DNA from: Streptomyces sp. SID3343
GTDB taxonomy: Bacteria > Actinomycetota > Actinomycetes > Streptomycetales > Streptomycetaceae
DNA length: 51,552 nucleotides
Assembly (NCBI RefSeq): GCF_009865215.1
Contig: NZ_WWJX01001603.1
Span: 1-51,552, forward strand
Direction of reading: 5' to 3'
The notes beneath the pieces were generated by a model that was not told the DNA's origin, searched no databases, and saw only the letters and a list, made by a program, of their open reading frames with translations. Below, one piece after another: positions 31,184-40,234 of this stretch (position 1 is its first letter; every line of letters starts with the position of its first letter). A program made the translations under genes and the position numbers.

Positions 31184-31532
31184 CCACTCGCCTCTCCGAA
31201 AAGGGGGTCGTCCGCAGCCGCCCCCACACAGCCGGGGCGTGGTTCACCGTTCTGGGCAGCTCTGGGTGCCCAGAACGGTTCGCGGCGGCGCCGGCTACAA
31301 CGTCCTCGGTCCATTCGACGTAGTCGACCAAGCACGGCTTGGAGACGCCAGGTGCGCAGCGTCCCGGGTGCCCGACCAGGCTTTCCCGCCCCTCGGCCTG
31401 GGGTAAGCGGCCTGCCGTACCCGGTCGGGAACGCCTCGTACGAGGCTGGGCGTTCGCTCCAGTGTCGAATGGTGATACGAAGTCCGGATCGTCGGCGGTG
31501 TCGTGCAAAGGGTCGGCCACCGCGCGGGTCAC
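31140..31532 (-). CDS. Doubtful small ORF after the lanthipeptide-cluster helical protein
   Basis: A GTG at 31530-31532 overlaps the stop of the upstream gene (GTGA), the same junction used elsewhere in the window. The frame is open for 130 codons. However, it runs through a strong terminator hairpin and into the convergent DUF397 gene. Third-position G/C bias fades after about 15 codons. If real, only its 5' part is likely coding. Confidence 0.2.
   Translation of the reverse strand: MTRAVADPLHDTADDPDFVSPFDTGANAQPRTRRSRPGTAGRLPQAEGRESLVGHPGRCAPGVSKPCLVDYVEWTEDVVAGAAANRSGHPELPRTVNHAPAVWGRLRTTPFSERRVVRTGSGLRSWPRRL
31184..31528. other. Convergent intergenic region with terminator
   Basis: About 345 bp between DUF397 and the lanthipeptide cluster end. 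It holds a strong hairpin (31247-31278) and one doubtful minus-strand ORF. No other signal is seen. Confidence 0.5.
31247..31278. terminator. Bidirectional terminator hairpin
   Basis: CCGTTCTGGGCA and TGCCCAGAACGG form a perfect 12-bp stem with an 8-base loop, between convergent transcription units. Confidence 0.8.
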
Positions 31533-32611
31533 AGAAGCCTGCGAAGCGCGCCTTCGGCCTTGGTCACGGCCATGGTGAGGGCTTGCGTGTGGGCCGCGGA
31601 GAGATTCCCGGCGTCGAGCCCTGACGCCGTGAGCACGGCGTCGAGTATCCGAGTCTGTTCACTGGTCAGGTAGGCGCGTGTCGGGTGGTGATTCAAGACG
31701 TCGCGAGCGGCGTAGGCATCGAGGGCGGCCACGTCGACGACAGCGTCCCGCACGAAGGTTGCGTCGAGGTTCGACTGGTCGGGGCTCAGATCGAGTGCGG
31801 TCAGCCCGACTCGGGCCTGGAACGCCGCCGTCGCCGGTTCCGGCGGGGCGATCACGGCGAGCGCCTGCCGCAGTGCAAGATCCAGTTCTTCCTGCCGGGG
31901 CCGACAGCAGGCACGCAGGAGGGCCGCGATGGTGTTCTCCCACGGTTCCGCAGGGACGGTGGAGTCGATCATGGCGTGGGCCTGACGGTCGAGGCCACGT
32001 TCCAGCAACGACATGATCATGATCTGGCGGCCGTCGAGCAGTCGGTTGCCGACGCCGCGGTGCGCGGCCATGGCCTTGGCAGCCTCGGTCCAGCGGCCGA
32101 TCCGCGCCAAGGCCCTGGCACCGTCGATGAGGACGGTCACCCACAGTTCCTCGCAGATCTTCCGGTGGTCCGTGTCCGTACCGGTCAACACCGACAGATC
32201 GACCTCGTGGCCGCGAATCTCGGCTGTATCGCGCCGTTGGGCGGCGCGGTACAGCCGACCGAGGACCTCGTAGGCGCCTTCGCCGTCGCCCTCGCGGATC
32301 AGCAGTCGGGCAATGTTCACCACGGGCATGAGTGCCATCACGGCGATGTCCCCGGTGAGGCCTCCGGCTGCGGCGAAGACACGGTGCTGTCTCCAGCACA
32401 AGTGAGCAGCCAGGTCGGGCATCCCGACATCGGAGGCGATCAGCGCCGCGTAGTTGAGGACCCCGCTCGCGCGGGCCACCAGGGTGTGGTGGCTCGCATC
32501 GGCGGGCGGGACGACGAGCGCGGTGAGTTCGGTAATGCGCTCGGCCAGGGGCAACCCGGTTGCCTTGGGTCGGCGCACCAGCGGGATACGGCCGGCCACT
32601 GCGGGGATCAT
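31529..32611 (-). CDS. Helical-repeat protein of the FxLD lanthipeptide cluster
   Basis: A 360-aa all-helical protein with TPR-like spacing (LLIREGDGEGAYEVLGRLYRAA, ALARIGRWTEAAKAMAAHRG). No HTH and no catalytic motif are visible. The sequence resembles the C-terminal sensory part of actinobacterial XRE-TPR regulators. AGGAG precedes the ATG, and only 4 bp separate it from the methyltransferase stop, so it is in the same operon. Its role in the pathway is unknown; an accessory or regulatory scaffold is possible. Confidence 0.68.
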   Translation of the reverse strand: MIPAVAGRIPLVRRPKATGLPLAERITELTALVVPPADASHHTLVARASGVLNYAALIASDVGMPDLAAHLCWRQHRVFAAAGGLTGDIAVMALMPVVNIARLLIREGDGEGAYEVLGRLYRAAQRRDTAEIRGHEVDLSVLTGTDTDHRKICEELWVTVLIDGARALARIGRWTEAAKAMAAHRGVGNRLLDGRQIMIMSLLERGLDRQAHAMIDSTVPAEPWENTIAALLRACCRPRQEELDLALRQALAVIAPPEPATAAFQARVGLTALDLSPDQSNLDATFVRDAVVDVAALDAYAARDVLNHHPTRAYLTSEQTRILDAVLTASGLDAGNLSAAHTQALTMAVTKAEGALRRLL

Positions 32612-32615
32612 CGGC

Positions 32616-34667
32616 TCAGCTCCTGCGTGGCCAGTCGACGACGAGGCGGCTGTGGGTCTTGTCGATGACGAAGCGCGGTTCGGCGAAAGTCAGTTGGTCG
32701 CGGGAGTCGCCGACGGCCATGCGGAAGCCGGGTTCGGGTGCGGTATTGCCCCAGCCACGGTCCCACTCGCCGATCTCACCTGCGACGTGGTCGGCGAGCG
32801 CGGCGGCGCATGGGCCGTGTCCGATGACGCCGATCTCCCAGAACCGGCCCTGCTCGTCCTCGCCTTCGCGCACGGTCAGGTAGGCCAGGGTGTCGCCGTC
32901 GAGCGCGGCCATGGAGCCCCATCCGAAATGCGGGGTGAAGCCGGGACGGGAACCGGGCATACGGGACAAACCGTTGGGCAGTACCGACGCCAGGTAGAGG
33001 TAGAGCCACTCCCAGGGGTCGCCTTGGCGAAACTTCACACCCGAGTAGATCTTGGTGAAGGGCTGGTCCAGAACGGTGCTGATGGCCTCTCGGTCTACGT
33101 CCTGTTCGCTGAAGGTCTCCAGGCGCACGTTTCCTTCGCCGGCCATGGGCACGAGGGCGTAGACGTCGTCGCAGACTCCCTTGCGCAGGGGCAAGAACGT
33201 GGCCATCTCGCACGAGACGGTCTCCCAGGTCCGGCCGTCGCGTTCGAAGGCGAAGCTGCGGGAGATGCTGCCGCGGATGCGCATCGGCAGGACCAGGCGT
33301 CCGCCGGGTGCGAGCTGGTCGAGGATCCGCACGGGAACATCGCCGGCGCCGACGGTGAACTGGATGCGATCGAAGGGAGCGTGTTCGGGAAGGCCGGCAG
33401 CACCGTCGGCCAGTACGACGCTCACGTTCGAGGCCCCGGCTTGCGCGAGGTTGTTTCGGGCGCGGTCGACGAGGTCCTGGTCGACGTCGACGGTCCACAC
33501 GTGGCCGTCGGGGGCAACGAGTCGGCCGAGCAGGCGGGCGTTGTAGCCGGTGGCGGCTCCGGCTTCCAAGACCTTGTGGCCGGGCTCTGCACCGAGTTGC
33601 TGGATCTGGGTGGCGACGATCGAGGGGGCGGAGATGCAGGAGATCATCTCGCCGCTCTCGTCATGCTTGATCGGGACCGCGTCGTCGACGTACGCGGCCC
33701 GCAGGTCGACGCCGGGAAGAAACCGGTGCCGCTCGGTGTCCCGGAACGCACTGACGACGGCAGACGTGCGCAGGTGGCCGCTGTCGACGAGGCGATTCAC
33801 GAGCGCTTCGCGCAGCTCGGCGGGGTCGGTTGCGGGGGGCAGGGTGCTCTCCATCCGAGTGAAGCTAGGGGCCGGGGCGGTGTGCCGGCGGGTGGACACG
33901 TCGGATTCATCCCTGTCGGCGAAGGCGACTTGCCGGCCCAGCCAAGCCGTCGCAGCCTGCTCGTGGACGGGTACTCCGGCACGATTGAGGGTGAAGATCG
34001 CATGGTGGGCGAGTACCGCACGCAGGCCCCGCGTCAGCTGCCCGTCGGCGGCCAGACGGGCCAGCCGGCCGCCTGCGTCCTCGAATGCGGTGACGCGCTC
34101 GACCCAGCCGGGCTGGGCGTCCGGCCGCCGGGCGGCGTCGGCATTCATCAGGCGCCTCATGGCCGTTATGGCCCGCTCGCGCGAGGCGCCGGCGGGCGCG
34201 GTGACGGGCGGCCGTAGGACGCCGATTCTGGCCCAGACGTCCCCGACCTCGAACGGGTCCAGGCCGGCCGCTCGGTTCATGGCGGACAGCAACAGGACGG
34301 AGCGTTCCCTCGCTCCGGGGCTGCCGGTTTCGGCCAGGGCGGCGCGACTGTCCGCGCAGAACACGTCGTGCGCGATGTCGATGCCATCGGGGCCGCCGAA
34401 CGCCTCGACCTCCGGCTCGTAGACGCCGCCGGCCCAGTCGCCGACCACCCGCTCGGCGACGAGCGTCTCCAGCAAGCGAGTTGCGGAGTGTTCGGTGCGC
34501 AGTCTCAGCCCCCCGTCCTTATGCAGGAAGTGAAACCGCCGGTCGCCCAGTGCGTACGACAGTGTCCGGGCGGCCTCGGCGCTCACCCCGCCATCGGGGA
34601 AGAACACGGTGGCGTGCCACCAGTGCTTCTCGGTGGTAATCGGAAGGTCCTCGTCGTCGACGTCCAT
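32616..34667 (-). CDS. FxLD-system methyltransferase fused to a LanB elimination domain
   Basis: A 683-aa fusion. Residues about 14-245 resemble the lantibiotic dehydratase C-terminal/thiopeptide-type domain (HWWHATVFFPDGG, FLHKDGGLRLR, VYEPEVEAFGGPDGIDIAHDVFCADS), which eliminates glutamate to form dehydroamino acids. Residues about 285-500 are a protein-L-isoaspartate O-methyltransferase-like domain, with SAM motif VLEAGAATGYNARL at 366-379. A 180-residue C-terminal extension follows. The family is known as the FxLD-system methyltransferase. In related lanthipeptide clusters such enzymes methylate a core Asp, which then forms aspartimide or isoAsp. AGGAGT precedes the ATG. Confidence 0.88.
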   Translation of the reverse strand: MDVDDEDLPITTEKHWWHATVFFPDGGVSAEAARTLSYALGDRRFHFLHKDGGLRLRTEHSATRLLETLVAERVVGDWAGGVYEPEVEAFGGPDGIDIAHDVFCADSRAALAETGSPGARERSVLLLSAMNRAAGLDPFEVGDVWARIGVLRPPVTAPAGASRERAITAMRRLMNADAARRPDAQPGWVERVTAFEDAGGRLARLAADGQLTRGLRAVLAHHAIFTLNRAGVPVHEQAATAWLGRQVAFADRDESDVSTRRHTAPAPSFTRMESTLPPATDPAELREALVNRLVDSGHLRTSAVVSAFRDTERHRFLPGVDLRAAYVDDAVPIKHDESGEMISCISAPSIVATQIQQLGAEPGHKVLEAGAATGYNARLLGRLVAPDGHVWTVDVDQDLVDRARNNLAQAGASNVSVVLADGAAGLPEHAPFDRIQFTVGAGDVPVRILDQLAPGGRLVLPMRIRGSISRSFAFERDGRTWETVSCEMATFLPLRKGVCDDVYALVPMAGEGNVRLETFSEQDVDREAISTVLDQPFTKIYSGVKFRQGDPWEWLYLYLASVLPNGLSRMPGSRPGFTPHFGWGSMAALDGDTLAYLTVREGEDEQGRFWEIGVIGHGPCAAALADHVAGEIGEWDRGWGNTAPEPGFRMAVGDSRDQLTFAEPRFVIDKTHSRLVVDWPRRS

Positions 34668-34715
34668 GGTCGTGGGTACTCCTCGGTCGTGAGGCTTCGG
34701 GCGGATGAGGGGTGG

Positions 34716-35786
34716 TCAGGAAATGAGCAATGCGCGGGTCCAGCCGGTGGTGTTCATGCCGTCGAGTGCCAGGAGAGCACCCGCGCGGCCTTCCATGAAG
34801 CCGGGCTTGGACAACCGGTCGAAGTCGGCGCTCAGGCGCTTTTCCAGGTCTTCGATCAGTGGCGCGAACCGGGCCGGATCGGGACTGTCCTCGGCGACGG
34901 CGCGGGCGACGGTCAGCAGGCCGGACCATCCGTGACACAGCGAGGCGTCGGAGGTGCGGCCCAGGCGGTCCCGGTCGCCCAAGGCGCGTACGAAAGTGTC
35001 CTCCGCGGCGCGTCGGCGGGCCGGGTCACCCAAGGCGATTGCGGCCAGTTGCCGGGTACGGGCGATGCCGGGCTCCCCGTAACACCAAGACGGGCGTGCA
35101 ACCTGCGCTGCGGGCGGCTGGTCGGCGGACAACTGGTCGCGAGTGATCCAGTAGGACTGGCCGTACCTGTCCAGCCAACGCGTGAACACCATGATGGCGT
35201 CATGCTGTCCCGGCACGTGGATGCCATGTCGGGCGGCGAGGGACAGCACAGCCAACGGGCCGGCGATGCCGTGTGCGACACCGTTGTTGCCGTGTCCACC
35301 GTGCATGTCCTCGCCAGCGGGCCCGGTCTTCGACCACCAGCCCGGCAGTTTCCGGCCCTCGATGCAGACCGGTTGTGACAGGGATACCAGGTAGGTCAGC
35401 ACCTCCAGCAGCAGCGAGGCACCTTCGCGGGTCAGCAGCAGCGCGCCCAGCCCGCTCAAGCCGCGGATGAGGTCGAACTCCGAGAGATCCGGCAGCGACC
35501 CGCAAGCCTGCCGTCGGTGTGCCGCAGCCAGTCGGGTCGCCACGACGCAGTCGACGGCGTCCCGTACGTCGCGGTCGGCGCGCCCGGCACACCCGAGCAC
35601 GAACTCCAGCGCCGGGGCGCCATGGAACAACGACGCGTTGCCTCCGGCGCTGACACCTCCCGTGACCCCCTGCGCCAAACTGCTTCGCGCGCACCCGAGG
35701 TCACCGCGTTCGAGATGCAGGAGCGCCACCCCGAGTGCGCCCTCGGACAAGTCCTGCGTCCCGGACGGGGTTGCCGTCATCTTCAT
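34716..35786 (-). CDS. LanC-like lanthionine cyclase
   Basis: A 356-aa alpha-toroid cyclase that adds Cys thiols to dehydroalanine/dehydrobutyrine. The zinc ligands are Cys235 (SWCYGEPG), Cys284 and His285 (LCHGWSG). HGNNGVAHGIAG supplies the catalytic His172. It is somewhat shorter than NisC-type LanC (about 410 aa). The ATG at 35784-35786 overlaps the dehydratase stop (ATGA). An ATG two codons later is also possible. It belongs to the precursor-LanB-LanC-methyltransferase operon. Confidence 0.9.
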   Translation of the reverse strand: MKMTATPSGTQDLSEGALGVALLHLERGDLGCARSSLAQGVTGGVSAGGNASLFHGAPALEFVLGCAGRADRDVRDAVDCVVATRLAAAHRRQACGSLPDLSEFDLIRGLSGLGALLLTREGASLLLEVLTYLVSLSQPVCIEGRKLPGWWSKTGPAGEDMHGGHGNNGVAHGIAGPLAVLSLAARHGIHVPGQHDAIMVFTRWLDRYGQSYWITRDQLSADQPPAAQVARPSWCYGEPGIARTRQLAAIALGDPARRRAAEDTFVRALGDRDRLGRTSDASLCHGWSGLLTVARAVAEDSPDPARFAPLIEDLEKRLSADFDRLSKPGFMEGRAGALLALDGMNTTGWTRALLIS

Positions 35787-37819
35787 CGGCGTGCCCGCAG
35801 GGAGATGACGACGCTGTGGGCACGACCACCGATCCAGCCGTCGGCATCCGGCGGCGGCGCGTCGTGCAGGACCGCGACGCCGGTCGGGGCGGCGGCAAGG
35901 TGGGTGCGCAGCAGGTCCAGGTGCATGTTCTGGCACAGGTCGAGCGGCAGTTGTCGATCGTCCTGGGCCAAGAGCACATGGTCGGGGACGCCGAACCGGC
36001 CCATCCAGGCATGCAGTTTCGCGGCCCACTCGTCCAACGTTGTGGTGCGGCCGGGCAACGTCCGGGCCGGCAACTTCCATCGGGCAGGCGCAAGGATCGA
36101 ACGCCGGTAGTGAAGTGCGGGGGTGAACGGGAGGGCCCATGCCGCGCCCCAGTCGAACCACGTCACCTGCGGGGTCCCGGCGCGGCTGATCTCGGCCAGG
36201 AACCGGGCCAAGGGTGGGGTGTAGTTGTTCCACACGAAGTTGATCGCGGTCGGTGCGAGCAACTCCAAGTGTGTCCCGGTGGCGGCCTCGGCCAGATAGA
36301 GGCGGCCGTCGTGGAGGCCGACGGTCAGATCGGACGGGAACAACACGCCGTCCCCTCGGCGGCGAAACTCTCCGACGCTGACCACCCGGGGCAGCATTTG
36401 CGGGGCGCGGGTGAGCAGGTCGGCTGGGACGCGGCCGGCGTGGAAGGACAACTGGGCCACCTCCGCACCGAATTCGACCGTGGGCACGTCGGTGCACGTC
36501 GAGGCGCTCGGCGGGAACAGGTGCCAGAACCGGCCCGTCATCGATCCGGACGCGCGGGAAACGGTGGCCACCCGAAGGCGGAAGTCCCCGCAATCCAGAG
36601 CCCGGGTCGAGGCAGCCTGGACCTGCACGCACAGTTCGAGGTGGGGCGGGCCGACGGTCGGGTTACCCGCTGCAGCCTCCAACTGCTCGATCATTGCGCC
36701 GGAGAGCACAACCGATCTGCCGCCTTCGACGGCCGTAGTGCCGGCCAGTTCCAGAAGCAGGCGGTCCCGGCCCGTCATCGGGCGTGGCGGCTCGGAAAGT
36801 CGGCCGAACCCCTCGGGGAATCCCAGTCCCTTGTCGGGATCCGTCACCAGGTCCAACGGCACCTCGACGTCCTCGCCGAAGCGGTCGGCGAACTGATCGG
36901 TATAGCGCCGCCATGCCCAGGTCCCGGTTGGATACATGGCGAGCCTGGTCAGGACGGTCGCGGCGGTCTCCGCCTCCACTTCCACCGCCGCCGGCAGCCG
37001 GACCGAGGCGTCCAGCCACAGATCCGGCGCTCCTGTGCAGTTGCGCATACCCTCGCGCAGGTCGGGTGGCAGGGAGTCGGTTGGATCAACGACGGTGGCG
37101 GGGGCGCGCAGCGATGAACGCAGCAGCCGCAACCGCAACAGTTGGGCCGGCAGCCGAACCCGGCGGCGCTCGTCCGCCTCCGGGAATTCGGCGGCGAGCT
37201 TGTCCGTCAGGGCCGAGTACCGGATCGGTGACCGGGCCGCGTCGAGCACCAACGCGACCGCAGGCGTCAGCGCGAGTGAGAACTCGGATGCGCCCTCGGA
37301 CGGAACGTATACGCGGCCTTTCCGTCGACTGGCCAGATTGTTGACGCAGACCTCGACGTCGGCCATCCGCTCGACGTCCCCCTCCCACTCGCTGATCGCC
37401 GCGTCGAGCGCCACGGGATCCGGCCGAGCAACTGCCTGGTGGCGGTCTCCGAAGCGGGCCTGTGCCACGTCGCCGAACTCCACCGGTGCGACGCCCGCGA
37501 ACAGACCGAACGGGGTGGGACGTTGCGTGTACCTGATCGCGTATCGGGCGGTGGCAAGCGCCGCCCGGCGCGCCCGGCGTACCTCCGTCGATCGCCCGCG
37601 AATGATCGCTTGGACCTGCCGCGCCAGGTCGGGACTGGCGCCGGACACAGCCTGTCGAAACGCGTCGTCGGCCCACACCGCGCTCAGCCACGAACTCCAG
37701 TGTTCGAGAGGAGCCACGGGCCCCGGCCAAGGTGGCATGTCCGGCCCTGTGAGGTTCACCGCGGCGCGCAGCATCCCTTCGCCGGAACCCCGGTACCAAC
37801 TGTGTCGTAAGCGCGTCAT
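35783..37819 (-). CDS. Class I lanthipeptide dehydratase, glutamylation domain only
   Basis: A 678-aa LanB N-terminal domain. The signature RYTQRPTPFGLFAGVAP is at residues 96-112, and FNNL-like VNNLASRRKGRVYVPSE and FVWNNYTPPLARFLAEI are further family blocks. Full-length LanB proteins are about 1000 aa with a C-terminal elimination domain. Here the protein stops after the tRNA-Glu-dependent glutamylation part, and the elimination domain lies in the methyltransferase fusion. ATG 37819 is chosen; a GTG directly before it (37822) is equally plausible. It is coupled to lanC by ATGA. Confidence 0.9.
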   Translation of the reverse strand: MTRLRHSWYRGSGEGMLRAAVNLTGPDMPPWPGPVAPLEHWSSWLSAVWADDAFRQAVSGASPDLARQVQAIIRGRSTEVRRARRAALATARYAIRYTQRPTPFGLFAGVAPVEFGDVAQARFGDRHQAVARPDPVALDAAISEWEGDVERMADVEVCVNNLASRRKGRVYVPSEGASEFSLALTPAVALVLDAARSPIRYSALTDKLAAEFPEADERRRVRLPAQLLRLRLLRSSLRAPATVVDPTDSLPPDLREGMRNCTGAPDLWLDASVRLPAAVEVEAETAATVLTRLAMYPTGTWAWRRYTDQFADRFGEDVEVPLDLVTDPDKGLGFPEGFGRLSEPPRPMTGRDRLLLELAGTTAVEGGRSVVLSGAMIEQLEAAAGNPTVGPPHLELCVQVQAASTRALDCGDFRLRVATVSRASGSMTGRFWHLFPPSASTCTDVPTVEFGAEVAQLSFHAGRVPADLLTRAPQMLPRVVSVGEFRRRGDGVLFPSDLTVGLHDGRLYLAEAATGTHLELLAPTAINFVWNNYTPPLARFLAEISRAGTPQVTWFDWGAAWALPFTPALHYRRSILAPARWKLPARTLPGRTTTLDEWAAKLHAWMGRFGVPDHVLLAQDDRQLPLDLCQNMHLDLLRTHLAAAPTGVAVLHDAPPPDADGWIGGRAHSVVISLRARR

Positions 37820-37849
37820 CACCTACACCGTTCCGAGGAGAAGAGGAGC

Positions 37850-37881
37850 GTGGGCCGAACAGGACCGTCCGTCCGGCCCAC
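37850..37881 (-). terminator. Hairpin between precursor gene and dehydratase gene
   Basis: GTGGGCCG pairs with CGGCCCAC across 16 bases, with a further GGAC/GTCC inside. It lies 20 bp after the precursor stop and 30 bp before the dehydratase. It is a plausible attenuator that raises precursor expression over the enzymes. Confidence 0.5.
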
Positions 37882-37900
37882 ACCCTTGGGCGGACCTGGG

Positions 37901-38083
37901 CTAGGAGGTGGTGCAGGCGCTGGGGCAGGAACTCCCGCAGTTGTCACCCGTGCTGCACATCAGCACCGTCTCGGTCGCCGGCGTGTTCTCGATGATGGTG
38001 ATGTCGAGCCGGAACGGGTCGTCGACGTCGGCGACATCGCCCTGGGGCGGCTCGACGCTCGACGCGATGGTCTGCGTGCTCAT
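37901..38083 (-). CDS. FxLD family lanthipeptide precursor
   Basis: A 60-aa precursor. The leader (residues 1 to about 41) is acidic and carries FRLD at 24-27 within DDPFRLDITIIE, the FxLD box that corresponds to the FNLD box of nisin-type leaders. The core region is MCSTGDNCGSSCPSACTTS (42-60), with Cys at 43, 49, 53, 57, eight Ser/Thr and a single Asp (47) followed by Asn. AGGAGT eight bases upstream fixes the ATG at 38083. An open frame upstream to 38158 is not needed. It is the first gene of the biosynthetic operon. Confidence 0.92.
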   Translation of the reverse strand: MSTQTIASSVEPPQGDVADVDDPFRLDITIIENTPATETVLMCSTGDNCGSSCPSACTTS

Positions 38084-38278
38084 GTGTTGTACTCCTGATC
38101 CTTGTCGAAGAGACCCTGACGGGGACGCGCGGCCAGGCGCTGCTTGGTGCGACCGCACGGCCTGGCGTGGCCGGGCTCCGACTTCCGCAGCGCCCGGGGC
38201 GCAGCCGGCAGATGGGCAAAGGTCATCGCTTTATGTCCCGAGTCGAGCACACACCGCAACCGGGTGAAGGACAATGGC

Positions 38279-39616
38279 ATGGCCCGATCCAGCACCGATC
38301 CCATGCGAGGGAGGCTGTCCCTGATGCCCGATCAGCTCCGCGACGAAATGCGGAAGGCGCGCAAGGCATCCGGCATGGTCTGGGCGAGGCTCGCGCGCGA
38401 GGCAGGGTTCGGCGAGGCGTACCTGCGCAACGTGGAGAACGGCAACCGGTCGGTGACCGTCGCCGTCGCGACCGCCTACGACAGAGTTCTGCGCACCGGC
38501 GGCACCTTCGCTGCGGCGCTGCACGAGACCGGTTCGACGATCGACAAGAACGTGCCGTGGGACCAGCCGGGGGGCCTGACGGTTCTCGCCGAGTTGCTGA
38601 ACGGAAGCAGCGTGGATCGCAGAGGTTTCCTCTCGGCGGGGGCCGCACTCTCCGTCTCGGCAAGCAGTTGGTCCAAAGCCCTGGAGCGGATCCGGACGGC
38701 CAGGACGCCCGTGCCCCTCCCGGACGGTCCGGCCCTGTTGACCCATGTGAACGCCCGTCTGGATCACCTCAGGCATCTCGATGACGAACTCGGCAGCGGC
38801 GAGGTGTGTCAACTGGCGCGTGATGAACTGTCCTTGATCGTGAGGCTGATCACGTCGGGTCGCTACGACGAGGCAACGGTGGGCCGCCTGCATTCGACGG
38901 CGTCCGAAGCGGCTCGGCAGGTGGCGTGGAGCGCCTTCGACCAGGGCAGGCCCGGTATTGCCCAGCGCTTTTTCGACGGCTCCCTCCGAGCCTCCGCCGA
39001 GGCACGAGATCCGATCAGCGGCGCCTACGCACTGTCGTTCGCCGCGATCCAGTGCTACTCCACTCCGGGGCAGGCGGGTAGGGCGGTATCGCTTCTGGAG
39101 GCAGCGCAGGAACAGGTGAGGCGGAAGGCGACCCCACGCATGCACGCCATGTTGGCTGCCCGCATCGCCCGCGCCCTGTCGAAGACCGGCGCGAAGAAGG
39201 AGTGCGCTCACCAACTAGGCATCGCCCGGGCGGCGCTGGACAAGGGGAGGCACGACTACGACCCGCAGACCCTCTACTGGGTGGACTACGGCGAGATCGA
39301 AATGATCGCCGGCTCGTCCGCCCTGCAACTCGGCGACCCTGCCGAGGCGGTACGCCGCTTCGAGGCCGCCATGCAAGCGTCGTATCCCGGTGACGTCGAA
39401 TATCCGCGAAGCAACGCGATCTACCTGGCCCGCGCCGCCGAGGCGCACCTGGCCATGCACGACCTGGACGCGGCGGTCGCCAACGCGCGCCATGCCTCCC
39501 GATGCCTCGGCTCGGTGGACTCCGCTCGCTCGGCCTCCGAGCTGAAGGGCCTTCGCGAACAGTTGGCGACACATACATCACACACGGCCGTACGCGAGTT
39601 CCTAGAGGTCGGGTAG
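38279..39616 (+). CDS. XRE-family regulator with TPR-like C-terminal domain
   Basis: A 445-aa protein. The HTH is MRKARKASGMVWARLAREAGFGEAYLRNVENGNRSV (about residues 22-60, shown by VWARLAREAGFGEAYL). The rest is helical repeats, including AVSLLEAAQEQVRRKATPRM and QLGDPAEAVRRFEAAMQASY. A DRRGFLSAG stretch resembles a twin-arginine motif but is internal and common in this cytoplasmic family. GTGAAGGA precedes the ATG at 38279. It is divergent from the FxLD precursor (195 bp between starts), so it is the likely pathway regulator. Confidence 0.85.
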   Translation: MARSSTDPMRGRLSLMPDQLRDEMRKARKASGMVWARLAREAGFGEAYLRNVENGNRSVTVAVATAYDRVLRTGGTFAAALHETGSTIDKNVPWDQPGGLTVLAELLNGSSVDRRGFLSAGAALSVSASSWSKALERIRTARTPVPLPDGPALLTHVNARLDHLRHLDDELGSGEVCQLARDELSLIVRLITSGRYDEATVGRLHSTASEAARQVAWSAFDQGRPGIAQRFFDGSLRASAEARDPISGAYALSFAAIQCYSTPGQAGRAVSLLEAAQEQVRRKATPRMHAMLAARIARALSKTGAKKECAHQLGIARAALDKGRHDYDPQTLYWVDYGEIEMIAGSSALQLGDPAEAVRRFEAAMQASYPGDVEYPRSNAIYLARAAEAHLAMHDLDAAVANARHASRCLGSVDSARSASELKGLREQLATHTSHTAVREFLEVG

Positions 39617-40234
39617 ACCAAGTACTCCACGCAAACGGGCAGTCACGACCTTCTCGTCCAACGCCAGCAGCGGCGTGATGCCGAGCCTGTAAGCGGCAGC
39701 GAGATTCTCCTCGCTGTCATCGACGAACAGACACCGCTCAGCCGACACGCCGAGCTTGTCGAGCACCAGGCGAAAGATGGCGGGATCGGGCTTGCGCACT
39801 CCGTGCTCCGCGGAGAAAACGACCTCGTCGAAGGTGTTGTGCAGATCGAACCCCGCGTAAGGATCGTACGGTTCCCGCCCGAGGCTGTTCGACAACACCG
39901 CGGTCTTGATCCCGGCATTCCGCGCCTGTTGCGCCACCTTGAGCACCTGGTGGGCAGGGAAGGCATCGTGGAGATAGCGGGCGATCAGGTTGTCGGGAGC
40001 AACGTCGATCAGGGCGGCGAACCCTTCGTTCCAGTCGATCTGGGTGATCGCACCGAGTTCGAGTTGTCGGAAGAGTTCCTGCCCCCGCGGGTCGGCCCAG
40101 GCACGAAGGAAAGTCCCCCGCGTGATCTTCTCCCGGTCCTCGAAGCACGAGATCACCTCGACCATGTTGAAGGTCAGGACCCCGAAGAAGTCGAAGATCA
40201 TGCCGTCGTATGTGGACCCCGAAGATGTCGCCAT
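39602..40234 (-). CDS. HAD family hydrolase
   Basis: A 210-aa HAD-IA phosphatase-like protein. Motif I is MIFDFFGVLT, where the nucleophile Asp is present but the second position Asp is replaced by Phe-Gly (DFFGV is usual in this subgroup). Motif II is AVLSNS, motif III has RKPDPAIF, and motif IV is CLFVDDSEEN. It overlaps the convergent XRE-TPR gene by 15 bases. The substrate is unknown. Whether it belongs to the lanthipeptide pathway is unclear. Confidence 0.86.
   Translation of the reverse strand: MATSSGSTYDGMIFDFFGVLTFNMVEVISCFEDREKITRGTFLRAWADPRGQELFRQLELGAITQIDWNEGFAALIDVAPDNLIARYLHDAFPAHQVLKVAQQARNAGIKTAVLSNSLGREPYDPYAGFDLHNTFDEVVFSAEHGVRKPDPAIFRLVLDKLGVSAERCLFVDDSEENLAAAYRLGITPLLALDEKVVTARLRGVLGLPDL

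What the first reader, a model, noticed from the sequence alone, without database searches (positions are those of the whole stretch)
31529..38083. FxLD lanthipeptide cluster with a split LanB and an elimination-domain/methyltransferase fusion
The operon encodes a precursor, a 678-aa LanB that ends after the glutamylation domain, LanC, and a 683-aa protein whose first 245 residues look like the missing LanB elimination domain joined to an isoaspartate-type methyltransferase. Dehydration thus needs two proteins, and the enzyme that completes it also carries the Asp methylation activity. This could order the steps so that Asp modification follows dehydration. No transporter or protease gene is present, so export and leader removal would depend on host genes.
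Basis: partly seen in the sequence, partly recalled or inferred. Interest (0 to 1): 0.9.

Follow-up and report, generated by a model that had tools for sequence, protein, structure and literature searches.

The report
Lanthipeptide cluster with one fused lyase
A small antibiotic-like peptide gene cluster appears to have lost its usual dehydrating half-enzyme and to rely on an unusual lyase fused to a methyltransferase, which predicts a peptide with rare ring geometry and can be tested directly.

Summary
Five co-directional genes on the minus strand encode an FxLD precursor, a LanB ending after the glutamylation domain, LanC, a 683-aa lyase-methyltransferase fusion, and a conserved 360-aa protein. 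The fusion itself is known: it is the architecture of CoiSA, whose lyase domain takes part in forming D-allo-L-methyllanthionine (PMC9486935, PMC9011353). The fused domain is not the 'missing' LanB domain: it has the CoiSA/SptBb-type syn-lyase signature and branches apart from LanB C-termini. What differs is the LanB. In coi the fusion works beside a full-length LanB with its own anti-lyase; here that half is gone. The arrangement is conserved: of 45 fused clusters with a usable LanB from a scan of 199 genomes, 13 have the short LanB and 32 the full one. In 5 of 26 carrier genomes checked the fused lyase is the only PF14028 match. The ring-B residue (coi Thr50) is Ser in 27 of 28 short-LanB precursors and 3 of 32 parsed full-LanB ones. 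Best reading: a coi-related, syn-lyase-only system, a new variant of a known kind. The chemistry is inferred, not shown.

The parts
37901..38083 (-). LanA precursor, 60 aa; FRLD motif at residues 24-27; core with T39, C43, T45-G-D47-N-C49, S52, C53, C57, T59 (ring pairing inferred from CoiA1)
   Evidence: TIGR04363 59.3 bits, cut-off 30; core compared with relatives
35783..37819 (-). LanB glutamyl transferase only, 678 aa; no C-terminal anti-glutamyl lyase
   Evidence: Lant_dehydr_N 528 bits and no Lant_dehydr_C; 35 aa left after the N-domain profile
34716..35786 (-). LanC cyclase; CYG and CHG motifs present (zinc-ligand role recalled); start overlaps LanB stop (ATGA)
   Evidence: LANC_like 103 bits; conserved columns; overlap
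33906..34667 (-). N-terminal glutamyl lyase domain of the fusion, CoiSA/SptBb (syn) type: K50, R55, R57, E86, Ala at the NisB Arg826 position, no LLHxH motif
   Evidence: PF14028 52.3 bits, TIGR03891 102 bits; signature; K50, R55, R57, E86, A89 invariant in 12 aligned fusions; trees
32616..33821 (-). C-terminal PIMT-type aspartate O-methyltransferase domain with the extension of the FxLD system
   Evidence: PCMT 141 bits, TIGR04364 423 bits, cut-off 320
31529..32611 (-). Protein H, 360 aa, no family match; predicted mostly helical; conserved downstream gene; an H-like domain is fused to a lyase domain on another contig of the same genome
   Evidence: No Pfam (E <= 0.01) or NCBIfam (E <= 0.001) match; present in 30 of 30 short-LanB loci, window included; model pLDDT 75; lyase-H frame

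Best explanation
This is a class I lanthipeptide cluster of the coi type that has lost the anti-lyase half of LanB. The short LanB glutamylates Ser/Thr of the precursor using Glu-tRNA (inferred from family). The N-terminal domain of the fusion protein, a syn-type glutamyl lyase, removes glutamate in trans and is the cluster's only lyase, giving Dha from Ser and, by homology with SptBb, E-Dhb from Thr. LanC closes the rings, and the PIMT-type domain of the same polypeptide then methylates the conserved Asp (D47), leading to aspartimide or isoaspartate as in OlvA. Shown here: gene content, domain limits, lyase type by signature and tree, conservation of the arrangement, and absence of any other PF14028 match in five carrier genomes. 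Inferred: activity, stereochemistry (D-allo-L-MeLan from Thr, Lan from the ring-B Ser), ring pattern and order.
For: Short LanB: 33-39 aa after the N-domain in 26 of the 27 short-LanB rows used for the tree (16 by profile end in L117), against 317-340 aa in most full-length ones. Syn signature: the CoiSA K46-position Lys in 66 of 66 extra lyases and 0 of 44 LanB C-terminal domains; the LLHxH-type motif in 0 of 66 against 44 of 44; the NisB Arg826 position is Arg in 2 of 66 (L082, L096) against 42 of 44. Trees separate the two lyase types with support 100, and 28 of 29 fused lyases of short-LanB clusters form one clade (100/100) that groups with 26 full-LanB fused lyases (99/92). In 5 of 26 carrier genomes the fused lyase is the only PF14028 match (G127, G130; G199, G202, G212). 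Ring-B residue is Ser in 27 of 28 short-LanB precursors against 3 of 32 parsed full-LanB fused ones; Dha has no E/Z geometry, so an anti-lyase would no longer matter there. Precedent in papers: CoiSA(ED) with a lyase-dead CoiB still gave three dehydrations (PMC9486935), and SptBb, the only lyase of its cluster, makes E-Dhb (PMC9890492).
Against: In the coi system the product made with only the syn-lyase was not fully cyclised by CoiC, so a syn-only system needs a LanC that accepts E-Dhb at the ring-A Thr, which is Thr in 28 of 28 short-LanB precursors (plus the window). LanC of the short-LanB group differs at five conserved columns, which proves nothing. One short-LanB precursor keeps Thr at ring B (L131, from G127, a genome with no other PF14028 match). 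The window's own genome holds 7 other PF14028 matches, so help in trans cannot be excluded in this organism. The His of the IFHANR stretch common in coi-type lyases is Ala or Thr in the short-LanB rows, so activity may differ. The Ser change and the LanB loss lie mostly in one clade, so they count as few events. One of the five sole-lyase genomes (G199, L009) has its LanB in two frames in the held sequence. The structure prediction of the fusion failed.
Confidence: 0.7

Rival explanations
1. A host anti-lyase from another LanB in the genome completes elimination at some positions in trans, so the product has the mixed coi-like stereochemistry.
For: The window's genome has 7 other PF14028 matches, including LanBs with a complete C-terminal lyase (L065, L066); 21 of 26 checked carrier genomes have at least one more match.
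Against: 5 of 26 carrier genomes have none yet keep the same arrangement; LanB lyases are tethered and guided to their own precursors (recalled).
Confidence: 0.15
2. The fused lyase of the short-LanB clade has changed stereochemistry or has none, working as an ordinary replacement lyase that makes Z-Dhb as well.
For: Group-specific changes near the signature residues: typically FHFLRKDG in place of WWFMNKQP-like stretches and IFAFNR in place of IFHANR; the coi cyclase needed Z-Dhb at ring A (PMC9486935).
Against: The Lys, the R-x-R pair and the Glu are kept, and the His and Arg of anti-lyases are missing, as in syn-lyases.
Confidence: 0.12
3. The cluster is decaying: LanB has been truncated and no complete product is made.
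For: Several relatives have LanB in broken frames (L009, L011, L014, L030), and a truncated second copy lies on contig C986.
Against: Open frames, AGGAG-like stretches before three of the five genes and an ATGA overlap in the window; near-invariant cores and 83% mean column identity among 12 fusions from several genera.
Confidence: 0.03

Closest known systems
coi cluster of Streptomyces coelicolor A3(2) with CoiSA (PMC9486935, PMC9011353)
   Same: FxLD-type precursor, LanC, glutamyl lyase fused to PIMT-type methyltransferase with the same Lys and Arg spacing, no protease; an extra gene of unknown function (CoiH) in coi, a conserved H gene here (whether they are the same was not checked; the CoiSA and CoiH sequences were not fetched).
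   Different: CoiB is full length with an anti-lyase and both lyases are needed; here the LanB ends before the lyase. Core has Ser for Thr50 and a fourth Cys.
SapT (spt) split LanB, SptBa and SptBb (PMC9011353, PMC9890492)
   Same: Glutamyl transferase on its own polypeptide and a syn-lyase as the only lyase of the cluster.
   Different: SptBb is not fused to a methyltransferase; four SptBb-like rows fall far from the window's lyase in the tree (they were picked by motif and are not SptBb itself).
olv cluster with OlvSA (PMC13001092 and PMC9486935)
   Same: PIMT-type methyltransferase acting on a conserved Asp; an extra N-terminal Cys ring in OlvA, an extra Cys here.
   Different: Canonical OlvB and no extra lyase domain.
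Split LanB of pinensin, dmxorosin and thiopeptides (PMC7268733, PMC11855644, passages)
   Same: Glutamylation and elimination on two proteins.
   Different: Separate elimination protein, not described as joined to a methyltransferase.

Membership tests
FxLD lanthipeptide system (NCBIfam TIGR04363/TIGR04364) | Precursor and methyltransferase score above the curated cut-offs | tested here: met
   59.3 against 30 and 423 against 320 bits
coi-type cluster (CoiSA) | Glutamyl lyase domain fused to PIMT-type methyltransferase, with syn-lyase residues | tested here: met
coi-type cluster (CoiSA) | Full-length LanB with its own anti-lyase (both lyases used) | tested here: not met
   LanB lacks Lant_dehydr_C
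coi-type cluster (CoiSA) | Ring-forming Thr43, Thr50, Thr57 and three Cys of CoiA1 | tested here: inconclusive
   Thr at the Thr43 and Thr57 positions in the window, Ser at Thr50, one more Cys; CoiA1 itself was not fetched, positions taken from the paper and fitted to relatives
Split-LanB lanthipeptides (SapT type) | LanB glutamylation and elimination on separate polypeptides | tested here: met
Split-LanB lanthipeptides (SapT type) | Stand-alone elimination protein | tested here: not met
   Elimination domain is fused to the methyltransferase
Aspartimidylated lanthipeptides (lanthimiditides) | Conserved core Asp beside a PIMT homologue | tested here: met
   T45-G-D47-N-C49 in the window; T-x-D in 28 of 28 short-LanB precursors
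Aspartimidylated lanthipeptides (lanthimiditides) | Aspartimide or isoaspartate in the product | not testable with these tools
   Needs mass spectrometry

The most novel reading that the evidence does not exclude
A widespread clade of actinobacterial lanthipeptide systems has dropped the canonical anti-lyase altogether: a single bifunctional polypeptide is both the only lyase and the Asp methyltransferase. All Thr dehydrations would be syn, so the MeLan rings would all be of the allo kind, and replacement of the ring-B Thr by Ser, whose Dha has no geometry, would have made the loss possible.
Probability: 0.45. Interest if true: 0.62.

Novelty: new variant of a known kind. Interest (0 to 1): 0.5.

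Why it matters
The published survey places methyltransferase-fused syn-lyases in clusters that also have a full-length dehydratase, and the coi cyclase failed to close all rings of a substrate dehydrated by the syn-lyase alone. A natural clade with only the fused syn-lyase suggests that a cluster can manage without the anti-lyase, gives a ready test of whether LanC and the core have co-evolved with alkene geometry, and offers a small (five-gene) possible source of all-allo methyllanthionine rings.

Tried and rejected
Fused domain as the relocated LanB C-terminus: rejected by signature and trees. Truncation artefact: rejected because the short LanB is shared across genera and overlaps LanC. Help in trans as a general explanation: weakened by five genomes without any other PF14028 match, not excluded for this organism. 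Two independent losses of the anti-lyase (L102 apart from the main clade): suggested by the lyase tree (one clade in 0% of 200 bootstrap trees), but a single loss is not rejected (p-AU 0.479, 0.209), and the LanB tree puts all 27 on one side of a branch with support 11. Structure prediction of the fusion (mean pLDDT 39, 12 similar rows) was useless and was not searched. The H model gave no Foldseek match at E <= 0.001; the top rows include TPR and other helical proteins with low TM-scores.

Rows dropped: the match list was cut ('more matches are not listed'). From the listed rows I picked those with an open frame of at least 540 aa and fetched 74 regions. 57 of 74 had a LanB match; the other 17 were not counted. 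L097 (a 43-bit LanB fragment) was dropped from the short-LanB count (14 before, 13 after), 6 regions had a lyase outside the methyltransferase frame (among them L129, whose frames are broken) and 6 had none downstream of the LanB. Loci L009-L034 came from a search with the window's own fusion and are kept out of the 13-to-32 count. For the LanB tree L011, L014, L030, L070, L097, L129, L130 and L133 were left out; L009 was kept although its LanB is in two frames. In one search precursors under 30 bits were dropped (L066, L067, L096, L082 and two pieces of L077; L082 and L096 are full-LanB fused clusters), and one L073 precursor could not be parsed for ring B; some clusters give more than one precursor.

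Full report
What is there. On the minus strand, from 38083 down to 31529, five genes follow one another: LanA (37901-38083), LanB (35783-37819), LanC (34716-35786), the fusion (32616-34667) and a 360-aa protein H (31529-32611). The gaps are 81, overlap, 48 and 4 bases, and LanB stop and LanC start overlap as ATGA. Domain matches of LanA, LanB, LanC and the fusion are above the curated cut-offs. LanB matches the N-domain profile to its end and has no elimination domain; its alignment to the solved dehydratase 5ehk stops at residue 772 of 1115. The fusion holds a Lant_dehydr_C/TIGR03891 domain and a PIMT-type methyltransferase with the FxLD-system extension. No transporter or peptidase family was hit in nine neighbouring ORFs. 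In a tblastn comparison of the window's ORFs with 29 short-LanB relatives, the widely shared stretch is the five-gene block; an HTH/TPR regulator-like gene (38144-39616) and a HAD-hydrolase gene (39602-40234) are shared with three loci each.

The fusion is known. What I saw of the papers: PMC9486935, parts 1-3 of 5; PMC9011353, passages and the section on SptBb; PMC9890492, part 1 of 2; PMC7268733, PMC13001092, PMC10787088, PMC11285071, PMC11855644, PMC12710340, PMC9303977 and PMC9889658, passages only. CoiSA of Streptomyces coelicolor is a glutamyl lyase fused to a PIMT-type methyltransferase. Its lyase domain, CoiSA(ED), needs Lys46 and takes part in forming D-allo-L-MeLan; CoiB is full length. 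With a lyase-dead CoiB and CoiC, CoiSA(ED) still gave three dehydrations, but the product was not fully cyclised. [quoted passage not shown] PMC9011353 says clusters of that group contain two elimination domains in almost all cases. PMC7268733 had already noted stand-alone elimination proteins often fused to PIMT-type methyltransferases.

Which lyase is it. In an alignment of 110 lyase domains (recounted), the window's domain has K50, R55 and R57 with the spacing of CoiSA K46, R51 and R53, a Glu three residues before an Ala where NisB has Arg826, and no LLHxH motif. All 66 extra lyases have the Lys and lack LLHxH; all 44 LanB C-terminal domains have LLHxH or a close form and none has the Lys. 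Arg is at the Arg826 position in 2 of 66 and 42 of 44. The tree splits the two kinds with support 100. In a careful tree with four SptBb-like rows added (chosen by motif) and 7 LanB C-termini, 28 of 29 fused lyases from short-LanB clusters form one clade (100/100) that groups with 26 fused lyases from full-LanB clusters (99/92); branching inside that 54-row group is not resolved. Other fused and unfused syn-type lyases with a full-length LanB lie outside it, so loss of the LanB lyase from a coi-like ancestor is the simpler reading, rather than splitting of one LanB in two. CoiSA itself was not in the tree.

How common it is. A scan of 199 genomes (own genome and relatives) with TIGR04364 gave 84 over the cut-off. 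From its listed rows I fetched 74 regions; 57 had a LanB. With the window, 45 fused clusters had a usable LanB: 32 full and 13 short. A separate search with the window's protein gave 26 loci from named genomes, in Streptomyces, Microbispora, Nonomuraea, Streptoalloteichus, Sinosporangium, Rhizohabitans, Microtetraspora and others. 18 of them had a LanB: 16 short with a fusion in one frame, L030 short with broken frames, and L027 full with an unfused lyase; the bias to short is expected from the query. In the LanB tree 26 of 27 short rows form one clade (99); L102 lies apart on a long branch. One origin is not rejected.

Is it the only lyase. PF14028 was searched in 26 genomes with the short-LanB cluster, 12 and 14. 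In five (G127, G130, G199 = Microbispora catharanthi, G202 = Streptomyces bluensis, G212 = Microtetraspora sp.) the only match is the fused lyase. Limits: most are draft genomes, divergent lyases below the threshold would be missed, and in G199 the LanB lies in two frames. The window's own genome, a draft of 1645 contigs with 6.69% contamination, has 8 matches, counting the fusion itself and one identical pair on two contigs, so for this organism help in trans stays possible.

The precursor fits, with limits. In CoiA1 rings come from Thr43, Thr50 and Thr57. At the place of Thr50, 27 of 28 short-LanB precursors have Ser, against 3 of 32 parsed precursors from full-LanB fused clusters. L131 is the exception with Thr. 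The Thr43 position is Thr in 28 of 28 and the Thr57 position in 26 of 28, window included (for 27 of them). Four Cys in the last 30 residues are found in 24 of 28 short-LanB precursors, window included, and in 1 of 33 full-LanB fused ones (window read from its sequence). Since most short-LanB rows are one clade, these are few evolutionary events, not 28. The Ser gives Dha, which has no E/Z geometry, so ring B would no longer need an anti-lyase; ring A (Thr) would, if its cyclase still required Z-Dhb. That is the weak point of the all-syn reading and also its best test.

Mechanism. LanB glutamylates, the fused lyase eliminates in trans, LanC cyclises, the PIMT-type domain methylates D47. The last step is by homology with OlvSA, which acts only on cyclised peptide (PMC13001092, passages). 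I found no evidence that the fusion is needed for that order. H is present in 30 of 30 short-LanB loci and in 29 of 32 full-LanB fused loci, is predicted to be mostly helical, and an H-like domain is joined to a lyase domain in one 950-aa frame on contig C986 of the same genome, which ties it to the lyase.

Novelty. The literature searches showed no description of a methyltransferase-fused syn-lyase as sole lyase; one search listed 20 of 5,101 papers, most unrelated. The library lacks most subscription papers, two relevant ones were not held, and supplementary tables could not be read, so it may be recorded there. I rate it a new variant of a known kind, interest 0.5.

Noticed in passing
L005 616-3468 (contig C986 of the same genome): A single 950-aa frame joins a syn-type lyase domain to an H-like domain, in a cluster with a full-length LanB. 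It suggests that the H protein works with the lyase.
   Followed up: partly
L066 15540-17634: A truncated second copy of the window's cluster: lyase-methyltransferase 86% identical but missing the methyltransferase end, and a LanC remnant; no LanB match on that strand in the fetched stretch.
   Followed up: no
L065 (contig C18): The same genome also holds a coi-type cluster with full-length LanB, lyase-methyltransferase fusion and H.
   Followed up: partly
L102: A short-LanB cluster outside the main clade whose core joins a coi-like first half (LTDDGC) to the GSSCPSACTTS half of the short-LanB clade; possible second loss of the anti-lyase, or recombination.
   Followed up: partly
L071 5632-8124 and L072 5705-8124: About 2.4-2.5 kb of other DNA lies between LanC and the fusion in two relatives; not identified.
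   Followed up: no
L143, L147, L148, L155: SptBb-like syn-type lyases (FFFMHKPPGLR, YEPE-LFGG) outside any methyltransferase frame; three of the four have a weak LanC match nearby, so possibly SapT-like clusters. They come from genomes that also hold a short-LanB cluster, because only such genomes were searched.
   Followed up: no
LanC alignment (window 34716-35786): Five LanC columns are conserved differently in short-LanB and full-LanB clusters; candidates for a change in which Dhb geometry is accepted.
   Followed up: no
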